A DNA stretch of 64,000 nucleotides from Acidimicrobiia bacterium (GTDB taxonomy: Bacteria; Actinomycetota; Acidimicrobiia; Acidimicrobiales; Aldehydirespiratoraceae). The stretch is taken from NCBI GenBank assembly GCA_022820805.1, contig JAJEEV010000043.1, positions 75,363 to 139,362 on the forward strand, given 5' to 3'. A program made the position numbers and the translations under genes. The number at the start of each line of letters is the position of its first letter. Positions within the stretch are counted from its first letter, which is position 1. Under the pieces are notes generated by a model. It did not search any database and was not told where the DNA came from. It worked only from the letters and a program-made list of their open reading frames with translations. Below, in pieces: positions 17,406 to 20,705 of the stretch.

Positions 17406-19310
17406 CTATCCCCCGAACGCGCCGGTGAAGGTCCCGGCGATGACCGCGCCGGGCGTCGCGCCCCCGCTCGACAGCTCCAGCACGCCCTCGGTGAACGGCG
17501 AGAAGCTGTCCGGCGCGGCTGCGCCGGCCGGGATGGTCCACACACCGCCTGCGATGGCGTCGGAGCCGATGACCAGCACGGCTCCCGCGGCCAGGAGTTC
17601 CAGGTCCAGAGCCAGCGTCATCCCGGCGAGGGAGCCGCCCTCGTCGAGGCTCACGACCGTTATAGACACGGGCTTCTCGACGCCCGGAAGCAACGCCGCC
17701 TCCTCCGGGCTGGAGTGGCCGGCGAAGACCCCAGCGTTCTCGACCGATTCGGGCGATCCGTTCAGCAGCAGGTTGCCGAGGGTCCCTTCCGCCAGGGGGT
17801 TGGGACTCAGATTGGTTGCCCAGGTCGTCGCGAACTCGATCTCGAGGGCACCCGACCCGGCGTCGGATGGGATGTAGGCCTCCGGCTCGGGCCAGTCGGG
17901 CGGCTCCGGCGTGAGGTCGGCGAGGATCTCGCCCTCACGCTTGAGGATGAACTTGCGCACCCGCTCGGTGTCGTCAGCGGCGGCCTCCCTGGCCTCCCCG
18001 ACGGCGTGCTGTTGCACGATGGCGGCCATCTCGTCCACCGCGGCCAGCAGCTCGTCGGTGTCCCAGACGGCCTCCAGGATCTCCTTGAGCCGGTCGGCGT
18101 ACGCCATGCGCCAGTCGGGATGGTTGTAGAGGCGGTTCGGGATGGAGGTGAGGGCCAGCACCGACGGGGGAGGGTCGGTGATGTTGTCGAAGGGGTTGGG
18201 GTCGTCCTTGAGGTGGAAGGCGTCGTCGGGGCCCCACGGAATGAACACGAACCGGCCCTCGGGCTCACGGTAGAACTGGTAGTTGTTGCGGTTCCCGGCG
18301 TAGCCGTCCCAGTGGCCGATCAGCACCTCGGTGGCCCAGAACGACAGAAACCGGTCCAGGTCCACGATCTCGTCCAGCGCCTCGAGGCCGGCGTCGGAGG
18401 GGTCCTGGAGGGCGGCCACCACGGCGTCGATGTCGGACCAGTCGTCCTCGTCCTCGTTGGTCTTCTTCTCGATGGTGCCGCGGTACTCCGGCGTGAAGTC
18501 GCTGACCGTGCCCTCGTACAGGTTCCCGTCGTCGCTGTCGAAGTGGCGCCGCAGGAACGGCTTCTTGAGTTCCTCGACGTGGACGTACAGCCCCAGGTCC
18601 TTGCCGTTCACCGACACGGTCGCGAAGTTGCAGCGCGGCGCGGGGCTGCCGGCCGCGGTGAAGACTCGGTACGACAGGCAGGTGTTGACCATGGACGGGT
18701 CCTGGACGCTGTTGTTGAGGGTCATCCGCTTCATGACCCCGCCCAGGATCTGATCGTCCACGTACTTGTCGAAGCGCAGCTTGAGGGACGGCTTGGTGCT
18801 GCTCTGGGAGCCGACGAACCCCTTCTTGCGCACGCCGACCTCGGTGTGGGTCTCGCCGTCCACGGTCACCGTCGCGGCGAACCAGTCGTAGATGCTGGCG
18901 AACGGGCGGGACAGGCCGAACTCCTCGATCTCGGTGAACACGTCCTCGAGGGTGCGGGTCTGGTGGCGCAGGGTGTCCCAGTCCTCGACCGCGATCTCGA
19001 TGCTGATCTCCATCACCCGGTCCAGCGCGAAGTAGGCGTCGCTGGGATCGGCCTCTGTGCCGTCCCGGTCCGGGTCCGACGCGGCGGTCGATTCGCCCGC
19101 GGTCTCTGCCGGGGCGCTGCCGGCGGTGTCCGCGTCGGCCGGTTCGTGTGCCGATTCTGTGCTGTCTGCAGCCGGTTCCGTCGCGGCGGTGCTCGCGTCG
19201 GGGGCTGCCCCGGGAGTCGCGGCCGGGGATCCGTCGCCGCCGGCCCCGCCCCCGCAGCCGGCGGCGATGATCGCGGCCGCCAGCAGTGCCGAAGCCAGGC
19301 GCCAGCGCAT
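17406..19310 (-). CDS. CotH-type kinase-domain lipoprotein
   Basis: 634-aa secreted protein. The N-terminus is a lipoprotein signal (LLAAAIIAAGCGG, lipid-modified Cys about residue 19) followed by a roughly 70-residue Ala/Glu/Asp/Thr-rich linker. The central part matches the CotH family, an atypical secreted kinase fold: GVRKKGFVGSQSSTKPSLKL, LNNSVQDPSMVN, YVHVEELKK and the Asp-containing IPWGPDDAFHL. A C-terminal beta-rich segment of about 150 residues follows. CotH proteins phosphorylate spore-coat or surface proteins in bacilli; here the target is unknown. It follows the selenocysteine-type redoxin on the same strand by 76 bases, so co-transcription is possible. Confidence 0.85.
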   Translation of the reverse strand: MRWRLASALLAAAIIAAGCGGGAGGDGSPAATPGAAPDASTAATEPAADSTESAHEPADADTAGSAPAETAGESTAASDPDRDGTEADPSDAYFALDRVMEISIEIAVEDWDTLRHQTRTLEDVFTEIEEFGLSRPFASIYDWFAATVTVDGETHTEVGVRKKGFVGSQSSTKPSLKLRFDKYVDDQILGGVMKRMTLNNSVQDPSMVNTCLSYRVFTAAGSPAPRCNFATVSVNGKDLGLYVHVEELKKPFLRRHFDSDDGNLYEGTVSDFTPEYRGTIEKKTNEDEDDWSDIDAVVAALQDPSDAGLEALDEIVDLDRFLSFWATEVLIGHWDGYAGNRNNYQFYREPEGRFVFIPWGPDDAFHLKDDPNPFDNITDPPPSVLALTSIPNRLYNHPDWRMAYADRLKEILEAVWDTDELLAAVDEMAAIVQQHAVGEAREAAADDTERVRKFILKREGEILADLTPEPPDWPEPEAYIPSDAGSGALEIEFATTWATNLSPNPLAEGTLGNLLLNGSPESVENAGVFAGHSSPEEAALLPGVEKPVSITVVSLDEGGSLAGMTLALDLELLAAGAVLVIGSDAIAGGVWTIPAGAAAPDSFSPFTEGVLELSSGGATPGAVIAGTFTGAFGG

Positions 19311-19386
19311 GGCCGCAGGATACGGGCCGATCCTCCGGCGCGGTTGTGGCTGAGCCGGGGCGGTGCACCGCCCGCGCCGGGTGGCT

Positions 19387-20541
19387 CTAGCGGCGCAGCA
19401 GTCGCTTGAGGCGCTGCACCGCCGGCGTCCACAGCCACTCGGGTTCGGTGAACCGGCGGTGGTTCTCGCCCGGGAGCCCGGTGGGGTCGTAGAAGCTCTT
19501 GTCGGTGTGCTTGCGCAGGTCGCTCGTCCGCCTCAGTATCTGCAGGGTTGCATAGGTCGTCCCCTTGTGGGTCCAGCCCTGGCGCTGGTAGTTCCAGTTG
19601 TCGGGGGCCAGCTCCTGCGCGGCGGCGAAGTGCTTCAGGGCGCGCTCGCTGTCGCCGGTCGCCTCGAAGTGCAACGCCAGCTTGAAGGTCGCCTCGGCCA
19701 GCCGCTTGTCGTCGTCGACGGGCTTGAGCCGCTCGGCCAGTTCCGTGCTCGACAACACGTGCTCGCTGTCGGCGCCCCGCTCGATCCAGTCGCGGGTCGC
19801 CTCCGCGAACGAGTCGTCGCCCATGCGGACCTTGCCCAGGCCGAACCCGACGGTCGTCTCGGCCGGGTACACCCCCTCGTTGCTGCGAACGATCTGACCG
19901 TCCTCGTCGATCCACGCGGCCGACGGGACGTTCACCCAGCCGAACAGCGAGCTGATCTCATGGGTCGGGTCGACCACGCACCGGTAGGTCGGCGAGGCCC
20001 GGTCGAACCACTTGTCGACCGCCTTGGGGCCGCCCGAGTCCTGGGCCACGCTGATCAGCTCGAACCGGTCCGGTCCGATGGATTGGTAGAACTCCTGCCA
20101 GACCGGCAGGCTGAAGCGGCAGCCTCACCAGGAGGACCAGGTGAACAGCACCACCTTGTGGCCGCGCAGGTCCGAGAGCCGCAGCGTGTCGCCGTTGCGG
20201 TCGGTCACCTCGAAGTCGGGGGCGACTCCGCACTCCAGCCCGACCTGACGGGCGGCGGGCACCGAGCCGAGGCTCCAGACGTCGCCGTCGCGCACGTACT
20301 TCTGGCCGATCATGTCGGCGAACTCCGAGTAGTTGAGCCACACCCAGTCGTCGGCGTCCGCGATCCACTCGCCACGCTTGCTCTCCGGCAGCGGCACGCA
20401 TAGCTCGCCGAGGCACGCGCCCTGCGGCTTCATCTGCCAGCCGGTGGCGGCGGGGAGCTCGCCGAGTCGCACCCACAGAGTCCCGTCGGCGTCGGTCCGC
20501 TGGGCAACCTCGTTCGTCTTGCCGTTGGCGAGGATGATCAC
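19387..20541 (-). CDS. Predicted selenocysteine-containing TlpA/redoxin-like protein
   Basis: Two open segments in the same frame, 20541-20128 and 20124-19387, are separated only by a TGA at 20127-20125. Reading through gives a 384-residue protein with residue 139 in FTWSSW-U-GCRFSLPVW, the place of the redox-active Cys in TlpA/thioredoxin proteins (WC..C). Cys141 would be the partner, a U-x-C motif. Downstream are the typical redoxin strand ELISVAQDSGG, the cis-Pro loop VNVPSAAWIDEDG and a helical TPR-like tail. The N-terminal 95 residues are a separate beta-rich domain. I start at the GTG at 20541, with GGAG six bases upstream; another GTG is at 20577. A SECIS hairpin follows the UGA. The alternative is a nonsense mutation or sequencing error, made unlikely by the hairpin and by intact coding on both sides. 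Confidence 0.85.
20094..20110 (-). promoter_or_regulatory. SECIS element for the in-frame UGA
   Basis: On the minus strand, 14 bases after the UGA, CCTGCC-GGTCT-GGCAGG forms a perfect 6-bp stem with a five-base loop. The two loop guanines are at +21 and +22 from the UGA. The E. coli fdhF SECIS, bound by SelB, likewise has a short stem capped by a loop containing GGUCU with the guanines at about +19/+20. Position, stem length and loop identity all fit a bacterial SECIS. Confidence 0.85.
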
Positions 20542-20705
20542 GATTGCTCCGTCGCGCCGATTGACCCGGCCAAGCACGCGCTTCGCCGCGCGTCCTGTGC
20601 TAGCGGCACCGACCGTAGTGCTCGCAGGCCGCGAGGGCCAGCACGCCCGGAGCCGCTGCCCGCGCTCGGCGGACGCTCAGCAGTCGGCCATGGCCCTTGC
20701 AATGT

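What the first reader, a model, noticed from the sequence alone, without database searches (positions are those of the whole stretch)
19387..20541. In-frame UGA at the redox site of a TlpA-like protein: likely selenoprotein
Two same-frame open segments are separated only by a TGA located in WSSW-TGA-GCR, exactly where thioredoxin/TlpA proteins have the attacking Cys. The resulting U-x-C pair is rare compared with CxxC. Coding continues intact downstream for 246 codons, including the cis-Pro loop region. Ordinary annotation would give two hypothetical fragments.
Basis: partly seen in the sequence, partly recalled or inferred. Interest (0 to 1): 0.92.

Follow-up and report, generated by a model that had tools for sequence, protein, structure and literature searches.

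The report
Known-type selenoprotein, ResA-like UGC family
The gene very probably reads an internal UGA "stop" as the rare amino acid selenocysteine at its redox-active site, but it belongs to a bacterial selenoprotein kind already described in surveys and already modelled at NCBI, so it is a correct find of an ordinary kind.

Summary
Confirmed: the gene lies on the minus strand, 20541 down to 19387. It has 384 codons, a GTG start behind a GGAG, and one in-frame TGA at 20127-20125 (codon 139), in WSSW-U-GCR at the attacking-Cys position of a ResA/TlpA domain.

Four lines of evidence support selenocysteine. (1) The same genome carries tRNA-Sec(UCA), adjacent selA-selB, and a selD with its own in-frame TGA. 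(2) All 14 close orthologs keep the TGA; coding constraint is as strong after it (dN/dS 0.21) as before it (0.25). (3) TGA homologs occur in 34 of 49 selA-positive relatives and 0 of 12 selA-negative ones; three of the latter carry full-length Cys (CGC) homologs, as do 78 public loci. (4) A 6-bp stem with a GGUCU loop 20 nt after the UGA fits a bacterial SECIS; it pairs fully in 19 of 19 distinct Sec sequences but 20 of 78 Cys sequences.

It is not new in kind. UGC-containing Prx-like/TlpA selenoproteins have been reported since 2008, and NCBIfam NF041054 (ResA-like WAxxUGC) models the family. This clade scores 271 against a cut-off of 300, so it is a divergent relative. Function is inferred: a thiol/selenol oxidoreductase, probably cytoplasmic.

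The parts
19387..20541 (-). Selenoprotein gene, 384 aa with U139: N-terminal two-repeat beta/alpha domain (about 22-91), ResA/TlpA-like thioredoxin domain (about 106-240), TPR-like helical domain (about 244-344), low-confidence C-terminal tail
20125..20127 (-). In-frame TGA, codon 139, read as selenocysteine; conserved in all 14 close orthologs, Cys codon in homologs of selA-less genomes
20119..20121 (-). Codon of invariant Cys141, the presumed resolving Cys of the U-G-C motif
20094..20110 (-). Putative bacterial SECIS apical hairpin CCUGCC-GGUCU-GGCAGG, loop beginning 20 nt after the UGA; 6 of 6 pairs in every Sec sequence, one compensatory C-G to U-A change
20398..20415 (-). Codons 43-48, holding the invariant N-terminal Cys pair C43 and C48 (GxCxGxxCVPL)
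20539..20550 (-). GGAG Shine-Dalgarno-like sequence and GTG start, conserved among the orthologs inspected

Best explanation
A selenocysteine-containing ResA/TlpA-like oxidoreductase of the 'UGC' (WAxxUGC) selenoprotein kind. UGA codon 139 is decoded by SelB with Sec-tRNA(UCA), helped by a hairpin directly downstream of the UGA [inferred from conservation, not shown biochemically]. Sec139 takes the place of the attacking Cys of the WCxxC motif and Cys141 acts as resolving residue after loss of one intervening residue, so the enzyme would cycle through a U139-C141 selenenylsulfide [inferred]. The invariant C43/C48 pair of the N-terminal domain may pass electrons to it, and the TPR-like helices may bind a partner protein [speculative]. 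No signal peptide is apparent by inspection, so it probably acts in the cytoplasm as a disulfide reductase or peroxidase-type redox enzyme [inferred].
For: Machinery in G000: tRNA-Sec at C25:11657 (68.3 bits, gathering 47; ARAGORN tRNA-SeC, anticodon tca); selA 377 bits (cut-off 268) and selB 279 bits (cut-off 242) side by side on C46; selD 358 bits with its own in-frame TGA in GAG-U-GCK. The TGA codon is invariant in 13 codon-aligned orthologs, dN/dS 0.25 upstream and 0.21 downstream. TGA-containing homologs: 34 of 49 selA-positive relatives, 0 of 12 selA-negative; the full-length homologs in selA-negative G038, G058 and G059 read WCGC. Cys at the same codon in 78 named loci found with a WCGC-type pattern: Frankia, Nocardioides, Patulibacter, Myxococcus and others. 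SECIS stem: 19/19 Sec versus 20/78 Cys sequences fully paired, Fisher p about 1e-9; within LPxWQ-encoding rows only, 18/18 versus 18/39, p about 5e-5. Fold: AF2 pLDDT 85; best PDB matches are ResA/TlpA/DsbE-type. Family: NF041054 271 bits, matched by all 19 aligned members.
Against: The NF041054 score is below its curated cut-off of 300. Single-sequence folding of the hairpin region is not exceptional (z -0.35 and -1.1), synonymous suppression over the SECIS region is weak, and true covariation is one compensatory change. Shared ancestry inflates the Fisher tests. One TGA homolog (G057) lies in a genome with only a fragmentary selA match. No biochemistry.
Confidence: 0.96

Rival explanations
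1. Pseudogene: an ordinary Cys-type protein whose TGC/TGT codon mutated to a stop.
For: One-base difference TGC/TGT to TGA; Cys homologs exist.
Against: All 14 orthologs keep the same TGA, with strong purifying selection downstream of it; TGA forms are not seen in selA-negative genomes.
Confidence: 0.01
2. Two separate genes (an N-terminal fragment and a C-terminal ORF starting at an internal GTG), as ordinary annotation would give.
For: A mechanical ORF of 220 aa starts at 20049.
Against: The stretch between the TGA and that GTG is conserved protein (UGCRFSLPVWQE...), and the Cys homologs are single uninterrupted genes.
Confidence: 0.01
3. Genome-wide reassignment of UGA (for example to Trp) or non-specific UGA read-through rather than selenocysteine.
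For: UGA is read through in this gene.
Against: The genome has a tRNA-Sec, selA, selB and selD; the homologous residue is Cys in the non-Sec homologs inspected; only one UGA lies in the frame.
Confidence: 0.01

Closest known systems
NCBIfam NF041054, WAxxUGC_long, 'ResA-like WAxxUGC motif-containing protein'
   Same: ResA-like domain with the same U-G-C motif and an upstream domain covered by the model from position 8 on; matches over the cut-off in the phylum nearly all contain one in-frame TGA.
   Different: Scores 271 of 300 bits; WSSW rather than WAxx before U in this genome; longer, divergent C-terminal tail.
UGC-containing Prx-like / TlpA disulfide reductase family selenoprotein (PMC2398784, PMC9312934, PMC13188914)
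   Same: Pfam AhpC-TSA (PF00578) / TlpA-type domain with a UGC motif; reported as Sec and Cys forms in marine and non-marine metagenomes.
   Different: Survey entries are defined by domain and motif only; sequence identity to the listed examples (MDE0950781.1, MBL6689828.1) was not tested.
ResA / TlpA / StoA thiol-disulfide oxidoreductases
   Same: Thioredoxin-like fold, attacking residue after W, cis-Pro region (NVPS); best PDB matches 4nmu, 3kcm, 3gl3, 1su9.
   Different: U-x-C instead of C-x-x-C, extra N- and C-terminal domains, no apparent signal peptide or membrane anchor.

Membership tests
Bacterial selenoprotein | In-frame UGA conserved among orthologs with coding constraint on both sides | tested here: met
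Bacterial selenoprotein | Cys homologs at the position of the UGA | tested here: met
Bacterial selenoprotein | tRNA-Sec, selA, selB and selD in the same genome | tested here: met
Bacterial selenoprotein | SECIS hairpin directly 3' of the UGA | tested here: met
   6-bp stem, GGUCU loop 20 nt after the UGA, 19/19 Sec sequences versus 20/78 Cys; its function is not testable here
Bacterial selenoprotein | Selenocysteine present in the protein | not testable with these tools
   needs mass spectrometry or 75Se labelling
NF041054 (WAxxUGC_long) | Score over the curated cut-off of 300 bits | tested here: not met
   271 bits, E 1.7e-80, over two stretches: a close relative, not formally a member
NF041054 (WAxxUGC_long) | W-A-x-x-U-G-C motif | tested here: inconclusive
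   WSSWUGC here; WASWUGC in several same-genus orthologs; WSSWUTC in G011
UGC-containing TlpA/Prx-like selenoprotein of the reviews | AhpC-TSA/TlpA-type domain with UGC | tested here: met
   PF00578 59 bits, cut-off 26; U139-G-C141
ResA/TlpA membrane-anchored thiol-disulfide oxidoreductase | CxxC active site and signal/anchor sequence | tested here: not met
   U-x-C, and the N-terminus MIILANGKTNEV has no apparent signal by inspection

The most novel reading that the evidence does not exclude
The genus-level clade is a distinct subfamily next to NF041054. Its invariant N-terminal Cys pair (C43, C48) would be an in-chain electron relay to the U139-C141 selenenylsulfide, and its own C-terminal extension would give it a different partner.
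Probability: 0.25. Interest if true: 0.35.

Novelty: new member of a known kind. Interest (0 to 1): 0.2.

Why it matters
It is a clean example of a selenoprotein that standard gene calling breaks in two, with the complete Sec machinery in the same genome and a natural Sec/Cys series across relatives. It adds a divergent clade beside NF041054, which could be used to lower or split that model. It does not change current understanding of selenoproteins.

Tried and rejected
Neighbourhood: the flanking CotH-kinase gene and M24 peptidase gene were each found beside the selenoprotein gene in only one other relative, though flanks were only 1.5 kb; the recurrent neighbours of the Cys homologs appear to trace mainly to one genus, Nocardioides; no operon partner was found. 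Synonymous-site suppression over the SECIS gave only a weak signal (88 of 371 windows as low). Plasmid search: only generic ResA-like hits. The motif name WAxxUGC gives no paper in the held library, and Haft and Tolstoy 2025 is not held. The antisense ORF 19363-20403 was not tested separately and is taken as a G+C-rich shadow of the real gene.

Full report
Observation. The minus strand from 20541 to 19387 codes for 384 residues interrupted by one TGA at 20127-20125 (codon 139) in FTWSSW-U-GCRFSLPVWQE.

It is not an error or a decayed gene. A search of 60 related genomes found 13 further orthologs with 71-91% identity; each has exactly one stop in the frame, and it is TGA at the same codon. In a codon alignment of 13 of these 14 sequences, mean dN/dS is 0.25 upstream and 0.21 downstream of the TGA, so the part after the TGA is under the same constraint as the part before.

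The genome makes selenocysteine. It holds a tRNA-Sec (68.3 bits; ARAGORN anticodon tca), selA and selB next to each other on contig 46, and a selD that itself carries an in-frame TGA in the GAG-U-GCK site. Across 61 genomes, TGA-containing homologs occur in 34 of the 49 with a selA match and in none of the 12 without. Three selA-less genomes (G038, G058, G059) carry full-length homologs with a Cys codon and the motif WCGC. One TGA homolog (G057) sits in an 88%-complete genome with only a fragment of selA.

Cys homologs are widespread. A pattern search built on the Cys form found 78 loci in Frankia, Nocardioides, Patulibacter, Myxococcus, Acidimicrobiia MAGs and a few other groups; nearly all of those checked read uninterrupted through CGC. 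Over Sec and Cys forms alike the invariant residues include C43, C48, the Sec/Cys at 139, C141, W148 and P206.

SECIS. After a gap of 14 nt behind the UGA the mRNA can form CCUGCC-GGUCU-GGCAGG, with the loop beginning after 20 nt and G at its first two positions; this resembles known bacterial elements such as that of E. coli fdhF (from my own knowledge). All 20 distinct Sec sequences in the alignment pair fully, with one compensatory C-G to U-A change in G004. Comparing distinct 36-nt sequences, 19 of 19 Sec but only 20 of 78 Cys forms have all six pairs; among those that encode the same LPxWQ, 18 of 18 against 18 of 39. Folding energy alone is not remarkable, and relatedness inflates the tests, so the element is likely but not proven.

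Protein. Pfam finds AhpC-TSA/Redoxin and weak TPR matches. AlphaFold2 gives a confident model (mean pLDDT 85.2, pTM 0.84) with an N-terminal two-repeat beta/alpha domain, a thioredoxin-like domain and a C-terminal helical region; Foldseek's best solved matches are ResA, TlpA and StoA-type proteins over about 120 residues. In the alignment to 3kcm, U139 falls on the attacking Cys of WCPPC and C141 on the resolving Cys with one residue missing. The most likely chemistry is a selenenylsulfide U139-C141 cycle in a thiol oxidoreductase. The substrate and the role of the C43/C48 pair are unknown, and no conserved gene neighbour points to them.

Known or new. NCBIfam NF041054, 'ResA-like WAxxUGC motif-containing protein', matches with E 1.7e-80 but 271 bits against a cut-off of 300; in the phylum nearly all matches over its cut-off contain one TGA. 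UGC-containing Prx-like selenoproteins were listed in the 2008 ocean survey (PMC2398784) and recur in the reviews of 2022 and 2026 (PMC9312934, PMC13188914). The finding is therefore a correct, well-supported detection of a divergent member of a known kind.

Many of its Cys homologs come from Acidimicrobiia and other Actinomycetota records, which suggests but does not establish that class.

Noticed in passing
G000:C44:53233-54147 (L049): The genome's selD is itself a selenoprotein gene (in-frame TGA in GAG-U-GCK).
   Followed up: partly
L031 (G011:C27): One ortholog has U-T-C instead of U-G-C at the active site.
   Followed up: no
window 20269-20478 (-), residues 22-91: The N-terminal domain has two beta/alpha repeats with an invariant Cys pair, somewhat like copper-amine-oxidase N-terminal repeats by eye; no Pfam match.
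   Followed up: partly
window 17406-19310 (-): The downstream gene encodes a CotH-kinase family protein with a lipoprotein-like start; probably unrelated.
   Followed up: partly
G001, G002, G003: Three same-genus genomes have selA but no ortholog of this gene was found, so it is dispensable in the genus or missing from those assemblies.
   Followed up: no
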